Origin: Aurantimonas coralicida
GTDB taxonomy: Bacteria > Pseudomonadota > Alphaproteobacteria > Rhizobiales > Rhizobiaceae
Length of the DNA: 64,000 nucleotides
Direction: 5' to 3'
Assembly: GCA_011050685.1 (NCBI GenBank)
Contig: DRFF01000045.1
Location: 1 to 64,000 of the forward strand
The translations under genes and the position numbers were made by a program. The notes below the pieces were generated by a model. The model saw only the letters and a program-made list of their open reading frames with translations, searched no databases and was not told the origin of the DNA. Positions 13,688-26,587 of this stretch are shown here, piece after piece (the stretch's first letter is position 1; the number at the start of each line of letters is the position of its first letter).

Positions 13688-13832
13688 CGGAAATCTTTCA
13701 GCTCTCGTTAACGGATTTGCAAGGGTTGCCTCACAATGCCGGGCCTTATCCCGCAGCCTGCGCCATTCTGGCAACAACCAGAGGCGCAGCCGACGGCGAA
13801 AATCTGCCGAAACCCGCTCGTTGGCCTCCTAC

Positions 13833-14261
13833 TCAGTCCTTGACCAGTTGCTCCGCAGCAGCGCTCACGGCCTGCCAAAGGCCAGGCGTCGTTCGGCCGT
13901 CGGCGTCGGCCGCGGCGACATCCGCCAAGCTCATCAGATACAGCGCAGCGGCGTCGTCCGCCGCTTGCATCGCCGCGTCCTCGGGAACCCGTCCACAGAA
14001 AACAGCGATCACGGCGTGAAATGCGTCGTCGATCGCCTCGTGCAGTCGCAAAAAGGTCAGCGGTCCGGCGATGACGCCGGTTTCCTCGGCCAGCTCGCGC
14101 CGGGCCGCGGTGTCGAGGCGCTCGCCCCACAGTACCTTGCCGCCGGGCAGGCTCAGGCGACCGGCGAAAGGTGGCTGCCCCCGTTCCACCAGGAGAACGC
14201 GATCGCGACTCATCAGGCAGACCGAGACGCCGACAAGCGGGCGGGCAGGGGGGTTATCCAT
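13833..14261 (-). CDS. NUDIX hydrolase
   Basis: 142 residues with the NUDIX box [22 protein letters not shown] (G-x5-E-x7-RE-x-EE-x-G), so it cleaves a nucleoside diphosphate linked to another group and needs Mg2+. The N-terminus [21 protein letters not shown] is the usual first strand pair. The exact substrate (oxidised nucleotide, ADP-ribose or other) cannot be read from the sequence. The 145-base gap downstream, before the TIGR02301 gene, shows nothing clear. Confidence 0.88.
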
Positions 14262-14336
14262 GGTGTCTCATTCCGATCCCCTTCCGTTGCCCGCGCACTT
14301 CTTGACTTCATGCCGTCGCTCCGGCTCAACAGCGCC

Positions 14337-15089
14337 ATGTGCGGACGCTTTACCCTGACGGCAACTCCCGAGACGATAGCCGAAATGCTTGCGCTGGCGG
14401 AGATCGAGCCGTTTCCGCCGCGCTACAACATCGCGCCGACCCAGCCCATCCTGATCGCGATCGGCGGTCAGGAGGAGCGACCGGGGGCGAATTTTCTCCA
14501 TCGCACGGCGCTTCTCGCCCGCTGGGGGTTCATTCCCGCCTGGGTCAAGGACTGGCAGAGTTTTCCGCTGCTGTTCAATGCCCGGGCCGAGACGGCGGCC
14601 GAGAAGAATTCCTTTCGCGCGGCGATGCGATACCGCCGCTGCCTGATCCCCGCCAGCGGCTTCTACGAATGGCGGCGGCGCGGAAAGGCGAAATCCGAGC
14701 CCTATTTTCTGCGGCCCGGCGACGGCATGCCCTTCTGCTTTGCGGGATTGATGGAAACCTGGCTCGGCGCCGATGGCAGCGAGGTTGACACCGCAGCGAT
14801 CCTGACGACGGCCGCCAACCGGCGGATCGCGCCGATCCACGAGCGGATGCCGGTCGTCGTGGCGCCGGCTGACCACACACGCTGGTTGAACTGTCGGGAC
14901 AACGACCCTGCGGCGGTCGCCGATATTCTGTATGCCGCCAACGACGATTTTTTCGAGCCGGTGCGCGTGTCGGACCGCGTCAACGCCGTGGCGAATACCG
15001 ATCCGGACATCCAGCGCCCGATCGCCGAGGCCGAACCGCTGCCAACCGGCACGGACGCGGCGCTCGATGTTCAGCGGAAACTGCTTTGA
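14337..15089 (+). CDS. yedK: SRAP domain protein, abasic-site sensor (YedK/HMCES family)
   Basis: 250 residues of the SRAP family, which forms a covalent link to abasic sites in single-stranded DNA through the N-terminal Cys. The start at 14337 gives M-C-G-R-F, so Cys2 becomes the exposed nucleophile after Met removal. Upstream in-frame ATGs, such as 14310, would bury it. Other family positions seen are NIAPTQ, NARAET, a central GFYEWRR (with the catalytic Glu) and a late RMPVVV. It acts in the cytosol. LysE follows 40 bases later. Confidence 0.9.
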   Translation: MCGRFTLTATPETIAEMLALAEIEPFPPRYNIAPTQPILIAIGGQEERPGANFLHRTALLARWGFIPAWVKDWQSFPLLFNARAETAAEKNSFRAAMRYRRCLIPASGFYEWRRRGKAKSEPYFLRPGDGMPFCFAGLMETWLGADGSEVDTAAILTTAANRRIAPIHERMPVVVAPADHTRWLNCRDNDPAAVADILYAANDDFFEPVRVSDRVNAVANTDPDIQRPIAEAEPLPTGTDAALDVQRKLL

Positions 15090-15129
15090 CCGACTTCTTC
15101 CAAACGCGAACCGAGCGATACGGACAGCC

Positions 15130-15750
15130 ATGACAGACCTTCTGCCGGCAGCCTTCGGCGGCTTTGCCCTCGGACTCGGCCTGATCGTGGCAATCGGCGC
15201 CCAGAACGCGTTCGTGCTTGAACGCGGCTTGGTGCGCAATCATGTCCTTGCCGTCGTGCTGGTCTGCAGCCTGTCGGATGCTGTGTTGATCGCCGCCGGC
15301 GTCGCCGGACTCGGCAGCCTGATTACCGGCGCGCCCGGTGTGGTCCGGTTCGTGACCTTCGCCGGCGCCGCGTTCCTGTACGCCTATGCGTTCCTGGCGC
15401 TGCGCCGTGCCTTCGACCGCAACGCCATGGCCGTGCGGGGCGGCCGGCTCACGAGCCGGCGCGCGGCGCTCGCAACGGTGCTCGGGCTGACGTTCCTCAA
15501 CCCGCATGTCTATCTGGATACGGTGGTTCTGCTGGGAAGCCTTTCGGCGCGATATGCAACGGGGGCCGAGAAAGCCGCCTATGCCGGCGGCGCGATGGCC
15601 GCATCGATCGTCTGGTTCGTGGCGCTGGGCTATGGCGCGCGATTGCTGGCGCCGCTCTTTCGAAAACCCGCCGCGTGGCGGATTCTGGACCTTTCGATCG
15701 CCGCAGTGATGGCGATCCTCGCAACCGGCCTGCTAGTCGGTGGCAGGTAG
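15130..15750 (+). CDS. LysE/ArgO family amino acid exporter
   Basis: 206 residues with five to six predicted membrane helices and the family signature AIGAQNAFVLERGLVRNH near the N-terminus, plus TFLNPHVYLDT in the second half. ArgO and LysE export arginine, lysine or their toxic analogues; LNPHVYLDT is typical of the ArgO/LysE branch. The usual LysG/ArgP regulator is not adjacent. The start at 15130 matches homologues, while upstream sequence overlaps the SRAP gene. Confidence 0.88.
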   Translation: MTDLLPAAFGGFALGLGLIVAIGAQNAFVLERGLVRNHVLAVVLVCSLSDAVLIAAGVAGLGSLITGAPGVVRFVTFAGAAFLYAYAFLALRRAFDRNAMAVRGGRLTSRRAALATVLGLTFLNPHVYLDTVVLLGSLSARYATGAEKAAYAGGAMAASIVWFVALGYGARLLAPLFRKPAAWRILDLSIAAVMAILATGLLVGGR

Positions 15751-15754
15751 CGCG

Positions 15755-15928
15755 TCAGCCGCCGTCTTTTTTTGCGCTCGAAGTGTCAGCCTTCGCCTGC
15801 TTCTGCTTGCAGCAGCACTGGCTCGCCGCCGCAATCGCGGGGATGCCGATCTCGTGGTAGTTGCGCTCAAGATTTACGTCACGCTCGCGGTCGCTCTTGG
15901 AGCGAAATTGAATTGTCTCGGTTTTCAT
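15755..15928 (-). CDS. Small conserved hypothetical protein with a CCC motif
   Basis: 57 residues starting MKTETIQFRSKSDRERD with RNYHEIGIPAIAAA in the middle and then three adjacent cysteines (QCCCKQK) before a Lys-rich tail. Short proteins of the form DRxRxxxLxRNYxxIGIPA appear to be conserved in Hyphomicrobiales, to my recollection, without a known role. GAGG lies just before ATG 15928; a longer frame starts at 15967. It converges on the LysE gene. Confidence 0.55.
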   Translation of the reverse strand: MKTETIQFRSKSDRERDVNLERNYHEIGIPAIAAASQCCCKQKQAKADTSSAKKDGG

Positions 15929-22983: not shown

Positions 22984-23589
22984 TCAAAGCCGCTCGATGA
23001 TCTCCAGCCGCCCTTCGTCGCCATTCACTGATGTCGCGGCGACAAGATGCGGCACGATGTCGGCGACGTCGTCGATGATAATCGGCCGAACCTGATGGGC
23101 GCGGTGCAGGAACCCTTCCTCGCTCATGTGGTCGAACAGCCGCGACAGGGGATCCCAGAAGCCGCCGATATTGGCGATGACAATCGGTTTTTCGTGCCGG
23201 CCCAATTGGCTCCAGGTGAGGATCTCGACCAGTTCCTCCAGCGTGCCGATCCCGCCGGGCAGAGCGACGAAGGCGTCCGATCGCTGAAACATCAGATGCT
23301 TTCGCTCGTGCATGTCCTCGGTGACGATCAGCTCGTCCAGCCGCTTCAGCTCGCGCTCGGTCGCCTCCATATCGATGAGGAAGCGCGGGATAATGCCGGT
23401 GACACCGCCGCCCGCCGCGATGACGCCTTCCGAAACGGCGCCCATGATGCCGCGGGTGCCGCCGCCATAGACGAGCCGCATGCCGGCTTCGCCGATCGCC
23501 GCGCCGAGCTTTCGCCCGCTATCGATATAAAGGGGATCGCGGCCCGCCGAGGAGCCGCAATAGACGCAGACGGATCGAATCGTGCTCAT
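22984..23589 (-). CDS. LOG family protein (cytokinin riboside 5'-monophosphate phosphoribohydrolase-like)
   Basis: 201 residues with the Rossmann fold and both LOG motifs: YGGGTRGIMG and LPGGIGTLEELVE, the second containing the catalytic Glu. Family members hydrolyse the N-glycosidic bond of nucleoside 5'-monophosphates; TIGR00730 is the matching group. Activity on cytokinin or AMP cannot be separated by sequence. ATG 23589 matches homologues. It is transcribed away from the protease/hydrolase fusion. Confidence 0.9.
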   Translation of the reverse strand: MSTIRSVCVYCGSSAGRDPLYIDSGRKLGAAIGEAGMRLVYGGGTRGIMGAVSEGVIAAGGGVTGIIPRFLIDMEATERELKRLDELIVTEDMHERKHLMFQRSDAFVALPGGIGTLEELVEILTWSQLGRHEKPIVIANIGGFWDPLSRLFDHMSEEGFLHRAHQVRPIIIDDVADIVPHLVAATSVNGDEGRLEIIERL

Positions 23590-23747
23590 GGTCGCGAGAG
23601 TCGGACGGGGGCGGGAGGAGGTCAAGCGGGAAGGGGCGCGCGGGGTGGACAATCGGTAAATGACGATCCAATATAGTATACGTCAGTCGTTTATTTGTTT
23701 GATCAATAAAAATTTCCTAGGGGTAGTTTCGATAAAGGAGTAGAGCC

Positions 23748-25808
23748 GTGACGAAAAAACCTCAGCAGAGCTCGCCGGAGTTATCCATCGCGCCAGATTT
23801 GACCGCGAACACTTCCAAAGAGAGTGGAGACATGGAAACGGTCTCTGCGGAAGACGCCGAGGCCAGACTACCCACCGATATACCAGAACTTCCAGAGCCA
23901 GATGTTCCCGCCGATGCCCCGCTAGCCGAGCCCGGCGTAATTAGGCTCGGAAATCGCGAGTTCATTGCTAGTCCGCAGACCTTTGCGGGTCGCAGGCTCG
24001 ATGTTCTCCCCGATCTTCCCGATATTCGCGATCGGATTTACCAACCGCACCTGAAGGCACTTCCCAACAGTATCTACCCGTCAATCGCGTTCAAAGTGCG
24101 CGATCAAGGTGCTTCTTCGAGTTGTACGGGATTTGCTCTTTCGCACATCATCGACTGTGTGACGCACAGGGAGATGCTAAAGGAAAGACCCCGTCGTGCG
24201 AGTGCGCGGATGCTCTATGAATTGGCCAAACGCAATGATGAATGGACAGGCACTGCCTACGAGGGATCAAGCATTCGGGGAGCGATCAGTGGATTTTATC
24301 GCAATGGCGTATGCGTGGAGAACCCTGCGGACGGCTCGAACGCCGAATGGATTCTAACCTACGAAAGGGCAAAAGAGGCGCGGGAAACAAGGCTTGGATC
24401 CTACTACCGTTTACAGCCTGACCTGTCTGATTATCATGCCGCTTTAAACGATGTCGGTGCGATTTATGCGTCGGCTCAGATTCATCAAAACTGGAATAAA
24501 CCCCTCAAAGGTCGCATCGAACCCAGCGGAGCGCCTGTGGGCGGACACGCCTTCGCGATTGTCGGCTACGATTCGGAAGGCTTCTGGATATTGAATTCCT
24601 GGGGCTCAACCTGGGGCGATGGGGGGATTGCCCATTGGCGGTACGAGGACTGGGCGGCGAGCGTCATGGACGCATGGGTTTTGCAACTCGGCGTACGGGC
24701 GCCAACTGCGTTTAGTGCCGCCCCGAAAAGTGCACCGTCCGCAATCTCGACGCCGCTGGTATCGTCCCCGCCTAACCGCGGAGACATCGTGGGACATTTC
24801 ATCAATATCGATGACGGTCGCTATATTACCGGCGGCCGATACGGTTCCCCAACTGCCGGTGAGATGGGCGAAACTGTCCGGCGGTTGAGCAAGCGAGATT
24901 CAAATTCTGGCAAAGGCTACGATCATTTGGTGATTTACGCCCACGGCGGCCTGAACACCTTGGATGACGAGGCAAGGCGCATAGCGACATGGAAGCGGCA
25001 CGATATTTTTGGCCGGAACCGAATCTACAATTTCCATTTGATGTGGGGGTCAGGTTTAGTCGACGAGGCCTTTGGTCCCCTGTCGGACATGCAGTCTGCG
25101 AGAGCTGCGGGTCTTATCGGCGACATCATCTTCGAGACCGGACCGGGAAAAGCGCTGGGCAGTCGTGCTTGGCGAAATATGAAGCAAGACGCGGTTGCCG
25201 CCTTCAGTGAAATTACAGGGTATAACGGCGGCTTCGTCGGCCCCGCCCCGCTGCTCGGTGGGCTAGACAAGGCCGAGCATCGTCCGATCGTGCATCTGGT
25301 CGGACACAGTGCGGGCTCCATCATACTGGGTCAATTTCTGGGTGCGCTTGGCCGGTTCAATTTAAAGAAATTTACTCTTGGCAGCATCCATCTGATGGCT
25401 CCAGCCTGCACCTCTGGTTTCTTCGATGAATTCTATGGCAATTACTTGAATGGAAACGGGGCGGTTGCACTAAAAGATAAAATTTATTTATACAATTTAA
25501 ATAAAAAACTCGAACTATCTGATACTGTTGCTATCAATGGCATTGGGTATGGGAGATCGTTACTCCATTTAGTGTCACGTTCTTACGAAGAAATGCCAAA
25601 CATGCCTCTCACGGGCATGGAATTATTCGCAGAAAATCTTCCGAAGTCCAAAAAACTTTCTGTAAATTATTCGAATAACGCCGCGACGAAATCAACCAGT
25701 CATGGCGGCTTTGATAATGATCCCGCTACGCTAACGACGATCATGTCTCATATAATTGGGGGCCCCGTTCCTAAACCGCCAAAAAAAGAAGAATTGCTCG
25801 GTTACTGA
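23748..25808 (+). CDS. Papain-like (C1) protease fused to an alpha/beta hydrolase
   Basis: 686 residues in one frame, with no signal peptide or membrane segment. Residues 1-65 are acidic, Pro-rich and probably disordered. Residues 85-315 form a C1-type protease with RDQGASSSCTGFA (oxyanion Gln120, Cys126), GGHAFAIVGY (His267) and ILNSWGSTWGDGG (Asn283). After a Ser/Pro linker (320-345), residues 390-660 look like an alpha/beta hydrolase with YAHGGLN and the nucleophile elbow VGHSAGS (Ser521). A later GFDND may supply the acid. The gene is clearly less GC-rich than its neighbours, most strongly at its end. The GTG start follows AAAGGAG. No immunity or secretion partner is adjacent. Its role is unknown. 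Confidence 0.8.
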   Translation: MTKKPQQSSPELSIAPDLTANTSKESGDMETVSAEDAEARLPTDIPELPEPDVPADAPLAEPGVIRLGNREFIASPQTFAGRRLDVLPDLPDIRDRIYQPHLKALPNSIYPSIAFKVRDQGASSSCTGFALSHIIDCVTHREMLKERPRRASARMLYELAKRNDEWTGTAYEGSSIRGAISGFYRNGVCVENPADGSNAEWILTYERAKEARETRLGSYYRLQPDLSDYHAALNDVGAIYASAQIHQNWNKPLKGRIEPSGAPVGGHAFAIVGYDSEGFWILNSWGSTWGDGGIAHWRYEDWAASVMDAWVLQLGVRAPTAFSAAPKSAPSAISTPLVSSPPNRGDIVGHFINIDDGRYITGGRYGSPTAGEMGETVRRLSKRDSNSGKGYDHLVIYAHGGLNTLDDEARRIATWKRHDIFGRNRIYNFHLMWGSGLVDEAFGPLSDMQSARAAGLIGDIIFETGPGKALGSRAWRNMKQDAVAAFSEITGYNGGFVGPAPLLGGLDKAEHRPIVHLVGHSAGSIILGQFLGALGRFNLKKFTLGSIHLMAPACTSGFFDEFYGNYLNGNGAVALKDKIYLYNLNKKLELSDTVAINGIGYGRSLLHLVSRSYEEMPNMPLTGMELFAENLPKSKKLSVNYSNNAATKSTSHGGFDNDPATLTTIMSHIIGGPVPKPPKKEELLGY

Positions 25809-25828
25809 GAATCTTCCTTACGGATTAT

Positions 25829-26587
25829 TCACAGAACCCCCGAAAATTCCTTGTCCACCGCCTGCAGCGTGTGTTCCGCCCACACCGCATCCCGCTCGGC
25901 CCGGGGCGCGTCGATCTCGTAGACGCCGCGCACGGCCGCCGGCCGCGCCGTCAGAAATACGATGCGGTCGGACAGTTGCAGCGCTTCCCTCAGATTGTGG
26001 GTGACCATCAGCGCGGTCGTCGGCCGGGCCGACCAGACCGTCATCAATAGCTCCCGCAGGCGGTTCGCGGTCATTTCGTCGAGCGAGACGAAGGGCTCGT
26101 CGAGCAGCAGCAGCGCCGGCTCGATGGCGAAGGCACGGGCGAGCGCGACCCTGCGCGCAAGGCCCAGCGACAGTTCGCCCGGATAGCGCGAGCGCATCTC
26201 ATTCAGGTCGAGAATGGCAAAGAGATCGTCGAGATCGGCGCCGGCCTTCGCCTCGGGCAGCGCCAGCCGGACGTTCTGCTCGACCGTGCGCCAAGGCAGG
26301 AGCCGCGGCTCCTGGAAGACGGCGGCGACGCGGCCGTTCTCGTCGGGCAGGCGGACATGGCCGGAAAAGTCGGTGTCGAGACCGAGGATGATCCGCAGCG
26401 TCGTCGTCTTGCCGCAGCCGGACGGACCGATCAGCGTGGTGAAGCTGCCGGGCGGCGCCTGGAACGCGATCTCGGCGATCGCCCGCACTTCAGCACCGTC
26501 GACCGCGTGGAACGTCTTGTCGCGGACGAGGACGTCAAGCGGGCCGGATACGCCAGCGGGTGGAATAGGCTTCGAGCGGTTGGACAA
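25829..26587 (-). CDS. ABC transporter ATP-binding protein (SsuB/TauB/NrtD type)
   Basis: 252 residues with Walker A GPSGCGKTT, a Q loop (AVFQEPRLLPW), a signature that reads LSLGLARRVALARAF, Walker B ALLLLDEPF and the H-loop His in MVTHNLREA. The LSLGL in place of LSGGQ is the usual variation of this nitrate/sulfonate/taurine group. The start is uncertain (TTG 26587, overlapping the permease gene by 53 bases). It is the last gene of a three-gene operon with permease and binding protein. Confidence 0.88.
   Translation of the reverse strand: MSNRSKPIPPAGVSGPLDVLVRDKTFHAVDGAEVRAIAEIAFQAPPGSFTTLIGPSGCGKTTTLRIILGLDTDFSGHVRLPDENGRVAAVFQEPRLLPWRTVEQNVRLALPEAKAGADLDDLFAILDLNEMRSRYPGELSLGLARRVALARAFAIEPALLLLDEPFVSLDEMTANRLRELLMTVWSARPTTALMVTHNLREALQLSDRIVFLTARPAAVRGVYEIDAPRAERDAVWAEHTLQAVDKEFSGVL

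What the first reader, a model, noticed from the sequence alone, without database searches (positions are those of the whole stretch)
23748..25808. Papain-like protease fused to an alpha/beta hydrolase in a low-GC gene
One chain carries a complete C1 triad (Cys126, His267, Asn283) and a separate GHSAG hydrolase elbow (Ser521). I know of no named family with this architecture. The gene is poorer in GC than both flanks, has an AT-rich promoter region and a strong ribosome binding site, and stands between ordinary genes, so it looks acquired. It has no signal peptide, and the first 65 residues are acidic and disordered. Possible roles include a self-processing effector, a defence enzyme or a lipid/peptide remodelling factor. 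All of these are inference.
Basis: partly seen in the sequence, partly recalled or inferred. Interest (0 to 1): 0.78.

Follow-up and report, generated by a model that had tools for sequence, protein, structure and literature searches.

The report
Fused papain protease and lipase-like enzyme
A recently acquired single gene encodes one protein that joins a papain-like protease to a lipase-like hydrolase, and some relatives of it in other bacteria sit beside wall-, membrane- and DNA-degrading enzymes, which hints at a cell-killing or defence role that remains to be tested.

Summary
[quoted passage not shown] S521 and, by conservation, D592 and H652). It is a real family: full-length relatives occur in Alpha-, Beta- and Gammaproteobacteria, and the 16 genome-collection relatives aligned with it all keep both sites. 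In the wider family the papain site is intact in 80 of 80 proteins, while the hydrolase site is lost or unalignable in 16 of 76; in three such pairs the domain is still under purifying selection. This copy is a 2.19 kb single-gene insertion: in the nearest same-genus genome the flanks lie 60 bp apart. Pfam sees only the papain half. Among 77 adjacent same-strand ORFs of relatives are GDSL lipase (9), caspase (7), trypsin (5), NucA-type nuclease (5) and peptidoglycan hydrolases; among 77 distal ORFs none of these families matched two or more. A related hydrolase also occurs fused to caspase, sometimes with a wall amidase. Best reading: a self-contained, protease-controlled membrane-attack effector of a conflict or lysis system. 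Architecture is near certain; function is inference. Published conflict systems pair caspase with alpha/beta-hydrolase and trypsin with NucA; I found no description of the papain fusion.

The parts
23748..25808 (+). Gene for the papain-alpha/beta-hydrolase protein, 686 aa, GTG start
   Evidence: homologues
23635..25828 (.). 2194-bp inserted segment, 52.4% GC, holding this gene only; the flanks are 60 bp apart in genome G002
23734..23740 (+). Ribosome binding site AAAGGAG
   Evidence: sequence
23748..23993 (+). N-terminus, residues 1-82: acidic in its first 65, poorly conserved, low model confidence
23997..24692 (+). Papain-like (C1A, xylellain-type) domain, residues 84-315, including an N-terminal segment with invariant D89, D92, R94, D95 that aligns to xylellain
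24123..24125 (+). Codon of C126, papain nucleophile
24546..24548 (+). Codon of H267
24594..24596 (+). Codon of N283
24693..24770 (+). Ser/Pro/Ala-rich linker, residues 316-341 (mostly low model confidence)
24771..25769 (+). Alpha/beta-hydrolase domain, residues 342-674
25308..25310 (+). Codon of S521, hydrolase nucleophile in GHSAG
25521..25523 (+). Codon of D592, proposed catalytic acid
25701..25703 (+). Codon of H652, proposed catalytic His in HGGFDN
22984..23652 (-). Left flank: LOG-like protein gene (name recalled), conserved at the empty site
25829..26587 (-). Right flank: ABC-transporter ATPase gene (name recalled), conserved at the empty site

Best explanation
A stand-alone, horizontally moving effector enzyme of the bacterial conflict/lysis kind. 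A xylellain-type papain domain acts as the constant catalytic and probably gating element; the fused alpha/beta-hydrolase acts on a membrane lipid or other ester. The protein is made in the cytoplasm, held inactive (proposed: by the conserved PDxxDxRD segment that runs into the papain domain), and on a trigger the protease acts on itself, at the linker or on partners, and frees the hydrolase, damaging the cell envelope. In some relatives the attack would be shared with neighbouring peptidoglycan hydrolases, GDSL lipase-caspase proteins or trypsin-NucA proteins. Shown here: architecture, both sites, conservation, insertion, neighbour pattern. Inferred: substrates, autoinhibition, trigger, self-killing outcome.
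For: Papain site in 80 of 80, hydrolase Ser and His in 59 of 76, plus one truncated copy counted as active by hand. dN/dS 0.03-0.26 in the 22 of 24 domain comparisons that could be computed, including three pairs with a lost hydrolase site. Single-gene insertion; nearest relative by tree path in Acetobacteraceae, a 53% one in Raoultella. 77 same-strand ORFs within 250 bp, in 59 of 87 loci: GDSL 9, caspase 7, trypsin 5, Endonuclease_NS 5, PG_binding 3, CHAP 3, Amidase_2 2, GH19 2, Tle1 1. 77 distal ORFs: none of these among families matched by two or more. PADLOC models among the near ORFs: caspase 7, nacht 4, RT-protease 4. Hydrolase-caspase polypeptides: 5 of 5 scanned have caspase, three of them Amidase_2. 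A caspase gene follows a bare hydrolase after 1 base in L145. Kaur et al. 2020 (passages and section 32) describe caspase with a neighbouring alpha/beta-hydrolase, and trypsin with NucA mostly in alphaproteobacteria, as conflict systems.
Against: No sensor, NTPase or other partner beside the window gene; its genome has no caspase and no match to the shared neighbour N-terminal domain at the thresholds used. PADLOC has no match to the protein up to E 10. In the window's own clade (23 loci in the tree) only 3, L012, L022 and L028, have one of the tallied effector classes adjacent on the same strand (classes). Four GDSL matches (L031, L118, L127, weakly L111) are below Pfam's own cut-off. No evidence of cleavage, lipid substrate or toxicity.
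Confidence: 0.45

Rival explanations
1. An antibacterial toxin exported or injected into neighbours (type VI or similar), the two enzymes being warheads.
For: Neighbouring peptidoglycan hydrolases, nucleases and one Tle1-like phospholipase in relatives.
Against: No VipB/TssC in the window genome, while the control rings in E. coli; no signal peptide; the next gene downstream of the window gene lies on the other strand, so no adjacent co-transcribed immunity gene is seen. Other secretion routes were not tested.
Confidence: 0.2
2. An ordinary catabolic or stress-related bifunctional hydrolase (peptide and ester breakdown), with neighbours of no meaning.
For: The window copy and many relatives stand alone among metabolic genes; both domains are broad, common folds; 67 of 87 loci have none of the tallied effector classes adjacent.
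Against: Patchy distribution (6 of 59 other relatives; 26 of 396 other genomes of the order; both include single-domain matches); neighbour contrast with the distal control; hydrolase site lost while the domain is kept under constraint.
Confidence: 0.25
3. A regulator or protein-maturation protease in which the hydrolase fold is chiefly a binding or scaffold module.
For: 16 of 76 members have lost the hydrolase site or cannot be aligned there, whereas the papain site is kept in 80 of 80; three lost-site pairs show constraint.
Against: The 59 members that keep Ser and His also keep Asp in 58 and HGG in 57, which a scaffold would not need.
Confidence: 0.1

Closest known systems
Xylellain (PDB 3OIS), C1A peptidase of Xylella fastidiosa
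   Same: Best PDB match, profile E 7e-31 over the whole papain domain, including the PDxxDxRD segment
   Different: 291-residue chain with no hydrolase domain
Caspase plus alpha/beta-hydrolase pairs of VMAP ternary systems (Kaur et al. 2020, PMC7159879)
   Same: A protease paired with an alpha/beta-hydrolase; relatives of this hydrolase are fused or adjacent to caspase
   Different: Papain instead of caspase, in one chain; no vWA or MoxR family among the 25 of 84 displayed for near neighbours; whether the hydrolases are one family was not tested against the paper's sequences
System 3, trypsin plus NucA endonuclease (Kaur et al. 2020)
   Same: Trypsin-Endonuclease_NS proteins directly upstream in 5 loci (L107, L114, L116, L117, L118)
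   Different: Absent beside the window gene; section 32 of the paper names a papain-like peptidoglycan peptidase linked by EAD1, not this fusion
Metacaspases with Amidase_2, one of them with GDSL lipase (PLoS One 2012, PMC3501461)
   Same: Amidase plus caspase in one chain as in L043, L141 and L142; [quoted passage not shown]
   Different: The main text has no occurrence of 'papain' or 'cysteine protease'; passages and one section seen
Protease-gated nucleases (Canu, Hachiman, AVAST; PMC12799240)
   Same: Logic of a protease releasing a second hydrolytic enzyme (passages)
   Different: The effector here would be an esterase fused to the protease; gating is only proposed

Membership tests
Peptidase_C1 / papain C1A | Gln-Cys-His-Asn active site | tested here: met
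   Q120, C126, H267, N283; all four kept in 80 of 80
Peptidase_C1 / papain C1A | Score above Pfam's cut-off | tested here: met
   26.2 bits against 20.7
Peptidase_C1 / papain C1A | Papain fold | tested here: inconclusive
   Strong sequence match to 3OIS and Foldseek matches to C1 proteases, but the model is poor there
Alpha/beta-hydrolase superfamily | Fold | tested here: met
   Domain model pLDDT 85.7; Z 11.8, rmsd 3.8, 196 aligned to 9bld
Alpha/beta-hydrolase superfamily | Nucleophile elbow and Ser-Asp-His triad | tested here: met
   GHSAG; S521, D592, H652 invariant in 17 of 17 rows of A1 and 58 of 76 in the wide set; geometry not measured
Any named Pfam or NCBIfam alpha/beta-hydrolase family | Model match to the hydrolase half | tested here: not met
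   No hydrolase family in Pfam or NCBIfam up to E 10 for the window protein; the distant L120 gives only sub-threshold Thioesterase and similar matches
VMAP MoxR-vWA ternary system | MoxR, vWA and VMAP genes together | tested here: inconclusive
   Not scanned for beside the window gene; none among the 25 of 84 families shown for 77 near neighbours of the family
Kaur System 3 | NucA and trypsin core genes | tested here: inconclusive
   Not seen among the ORFs beside the window gene, read by eye; present in 5 relatives' loci; the rest of the genome was not searched
Type VI secretion effector | Type VI machinery in the genome | tested here: not met
   No VipB/TssC in G000, an assembly 98.78% complete in 202 contigs
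Known anti-phage defence system (PADLOC) | Match to a defence model | tested here: not met
   0 families up to E 10

The most novel reading that the evidence does not exclude
The family is an undescribed class of protease-gated lipases: one alpha/beta-hydrolase lineage put under the control of different proteases, papain in front in this protein, caspase behind (sometimes with a wall amidase) in others, as executioners of bacterial lysis or phage defence. In lineages where a separate GDSL lipase-caspase or trypsin-NucA partner is encoded next door, the built-in hydrolase has often decayed to a scaffold and the papain remains as the switch. This would be the lipase counterpart of protease-gated nucleases.
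Probability: 0.3. Interest if true: 0.8.

Novelty: new variant of a known kind. Interest (0 to 1): 0.6.

Why it matters
Plasmid records that annotate full-length members call them 'C1 family peptidase' and miss their second enzyme. If the conflict reading is right, it adds papain to caspase and trypsin as a control protease in bacterial conflict systems, and gives a one-gene, two-active-site protein in which protease gating of a lipase can be tested directly. The lineages that lost the hydrolase site offer a natural experiment on which half is the essential one.

Tried and rejected
Chance fusion or frameshift artefact: rejected, since full-length homologues are many. A known single family covering both halves: none in Pfam, NCBIfam, PADLOC or PHROGs (PHROG 16701 'peptidase' covers residues 106-310 only). 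Phage origin: phage records hold only papain-like matches, in 3 records; 2 related loci came from the viral-contig collection, one full-length and one papain only. Low GC as a family trait: rejected. Type VI delivery in this genome: no VipB. Caspase partner in this genome: none. Several independent losses of the hydrolase site: the tree needs 3 changes, but a single clade is not rejected (AU p 0.444), so 1 to 3 remain possible. Full-length structure: poor in the papain half, so nothing is claimed on how the domains pack. Foldseek on the viral library gave only 2 matches at E 0.001 or better, to unnamed proteins of one giant virus.

Literature: searches gave no listing or passage describing the papain-alpha/beta-hydrolase fusion. 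Six papers were opened, none read whole: PMC7159879 (passages, section 32), PMC12799240 (passages), PMC10318531 (12 of 26 places), PMC10380794 (passages), PMC8195603 (passages), PMC3501461 (passages, section 13). The library lacks most subscription papers, so this is a limited negative. Xylellain's own paper was not held; its activation mechanism is not used as evidence.

Limits of the counts. Neighbour ORFs come from a home-made caller and include likely spurious ones (for example the antisense ORF window:23047-23673); it also missed annotated genes such as the haem peroxidase 59 bases upstream in L033. The control is one random ORF per locus, either strand, more than 3 kb away, while the near set is same-strand only with up to two per locus; only 25 of 74 control families are displayed. 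The Fisher tests ignore relatedness, and assumes zero in the control; they are not relied on.

Full report
The gene. ORF 23748-25808 is open, starts with GTG behind AAAGGAG and encodes 686 residues. Pfam recognises only Peptidase_C1 (26.2 bits, cut-off 20.7). NCBIfam and PADLOC give nothing up to E 10; PHROGs gives a 'peptidase' family over the papain half. The best PDB sequence match is xylellain, 3OIS (E 3e-13; by profile 7e-31), and it includes the conserved PDxxDxRD segment before the catalytic core.

The second half. A 17-sequence model gives high confidence for most of residues 341-686 and poor confidence for the papain half. The hydrolase part modelled alone has mean pLDDT 85.7 and pTM 0.89 and matches many alpha/beta-hydrolases, best Z 11.8 (rmsd 3.8, 196 residues) to a dienelactone hydrolase, with no family standing clear of the rest. 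Conservation names the likely triad: S521, D592, H652, with HGG 399-401.

Family. Relatives covering both domains: 17 loci from the genome collection (53-68% in the best segment; L023 is cut by its contig end), 13 of 24 plasmid records with at least 80% coverage, including Betaproteobacteria, and more by profile. Genomes other than the window's own with a match: 26 of 396 of the order at E 1e-10, 11 of 384 of the class and 15 of 397 of the phylum at 1e-20. These counts include some single-domain matches, and the draws share a few genomes. Among 59 other close relatives 6 match at E 0.001, three of them over both domains. Plasmid records that annotate copies with at least 80% coverage name them 'C1 family peptidase'.

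Which half is kept. In alignment A1 (window plus 16 relatives) both sites are invariant. Over all 80 proteins with a papain domain, Q-C-H-N is present in 80. Of 76 with both domains, 59 keep S521 and H652 (58 with D592, 57 with HGG), L023 is truncated but keeps S521, and 16 have lost the site: 13 with another residue at 521 and 3 that cannot be aligned there. The 16 fall into three groups on the trees, but one origin is not rejected. dN/dS between close pairs is 0.03-0.26 for both domains, including three pairs with a lost hydrolase site (hydrolase residues 345-589; two papain comparisons could not be computed because dS was saturated).

Neighbours of relatives. Twelve of 87 loci hold a protein with a shared N-terminal domain of about 60 residues (KITxEELxRKLADP...) in front of GDSL lipase (L118, L125, L127), GDSL plus caspase (L031, L113), GDSL plus caspase plus M15 peptidase (L139) or trypsin (L130) (the GDSL matches of L031, L118 and L127 are below Pfam's cut-off); nine of the 12 are within 100 bp. 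Such adjacent copies occur with 7 of the 16 lost-site genes and 2 of the 60 others (relatedness not corrected). Trypsin-Endonuclease_NS proteins lie directly upstream in L107, L114, L116, L117 and L118 (L117 by the count and similarity). Peptidoglycan hydrolases lie adjacent in L012, L022, L028, L031, L039, L040, L041 and L101 (those of L022, L031 and L040 by annotation, family counts and similarity to scanned ones). In all, 20 of 87 loci have an adjacent same-strand gene of these classes, a Tle1-like phospholipase or a haem peroxidase (compiled; L033, where the annotation shows an adjacent haem peroxidase, is not counted). Among 77 near ORFs PADLOC models hit caspase 7, nacht 4 and RT-protease 4 times, and a few helicase-like proteins once each. 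A control of 77 ORFs, one per locus and more than 3 kb away, shows none of the tallied families among those with two or more members; only 25 of its 74 families are displayed, so single cases could be hidden.

Other homes of the same hydrolase. In L043, L141 and L142 (the last in genome G007 of the window's own genus; scanned as L005) it lies between an Amidase_2 and a caspase domain, and in L120 and L121 before a caspase. L140 is similar by profile but was not scanned; a Tle1-like phospholipase gene follows it. In L145 a bare hydrolase is followed after 1 base by a caspase gene. In L032 a trypsin-like domain precedes the papain domain; L042 is annotated likewise, and L034 and L119 have extensions of similar length. 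L128 also has a long N-terminal extension, without a Pfam hit there.

Arrival in this genome. The right-hand marker gene was found in 6 of 7 same-genus genomes, and in all 6 both flanks are collinear. In the nearest (G002) they are 60 bp apart where the window has 2194 bp at 52.4% GC; in the other five the gap is 238 to 2274 bp at 66-71% GC, and none of the six has the family gene there. The nearest relative by tree path is in Acetobacteraceae. The 2061-bp gene fills the insert, leaving no room for a mobility gene. The genome has no VipB, no caspase and no shared N-terminal domain at the thresholds used.

Reading. Kaur et al. 2020 report that a caspase in VMAP systems is always accompanied by a neighbouring alpha/beta-hydrolase, and describe trypsin-NucA systems, mostly in alphaproteobacteria (passages and section 32). 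A 2025 paper shows proteases activating partner nucleases in phage defence (passages). The present family fits that pattern with papain as the protease. I therefore favour a protease-controlled, self-contained lytic or defence effector at 0.45, and mark substrate, gating and outcome as inference. What weakens it: the window copy has no partner, no defence model matches it, only 3 of the 23 loci of its clade have one of the tallied classes adjacent, and 67 of 87 loci overall have none.

Noticed in passing
L032:2-5833, L034:3-5849, L042:3-5951, L119:1-6825, L120:9899-17101: Proteins of about 1950-2400 aa, with starts that look like secretion signals by eye, are divergently transcribed from the extended papain or hydrolase-caspase variants; the three scanned (L032, L119, L120) have no Pfam family.
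   Followed up: partly
L031, L039, L040, L041, L113, L118, L125, L127, L130, L139, L011, L027: A shared N-terminal domain of about 60 residues, without a Pfam name over the cut-off in the 7 of 12 proteins scanned one by one, precedes GDSL lipase, caspase or trypsin domains, much like an adaptor that marks effectors.
   Followed up: partly
L161:3240-5503, L162:3561-5834: The insertion site of the window gene holds other genes in two same-genus genomes (they look like YceI and cytochrome b561, names recalled), so it may be a variable spot.
   Followed up: partly
L028:9816-12718, L037:9099-12016, L033:5313-7028, L130:6016-7917: Haem peroxidase genes, twice with a cytochrome P450, lie near the family gene (the two in L037 named by eye from similarity to L028), reminiscent of oxidised-lipid pathways.
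   Followed up: no
L037:6953-9001 and 13776-15803: Two divergent copies of the family gene lie within 5 kb on one Rhizobium gallicum plasmid.
   Followed up: no
L010:6857-7798, L011:13554-14393, L037:12852-13724: A recurrent protein of about 280-310 aa lies near the family gene in three loci; the copy scanned (L037) has no Pfam hit.
   Followed up: partly
L147:7242-9317, L148:7265-9148: Papain domains of the same kind with a different N-terminal extension of about 200 residues and no hydrolase match.
   Followed up: no
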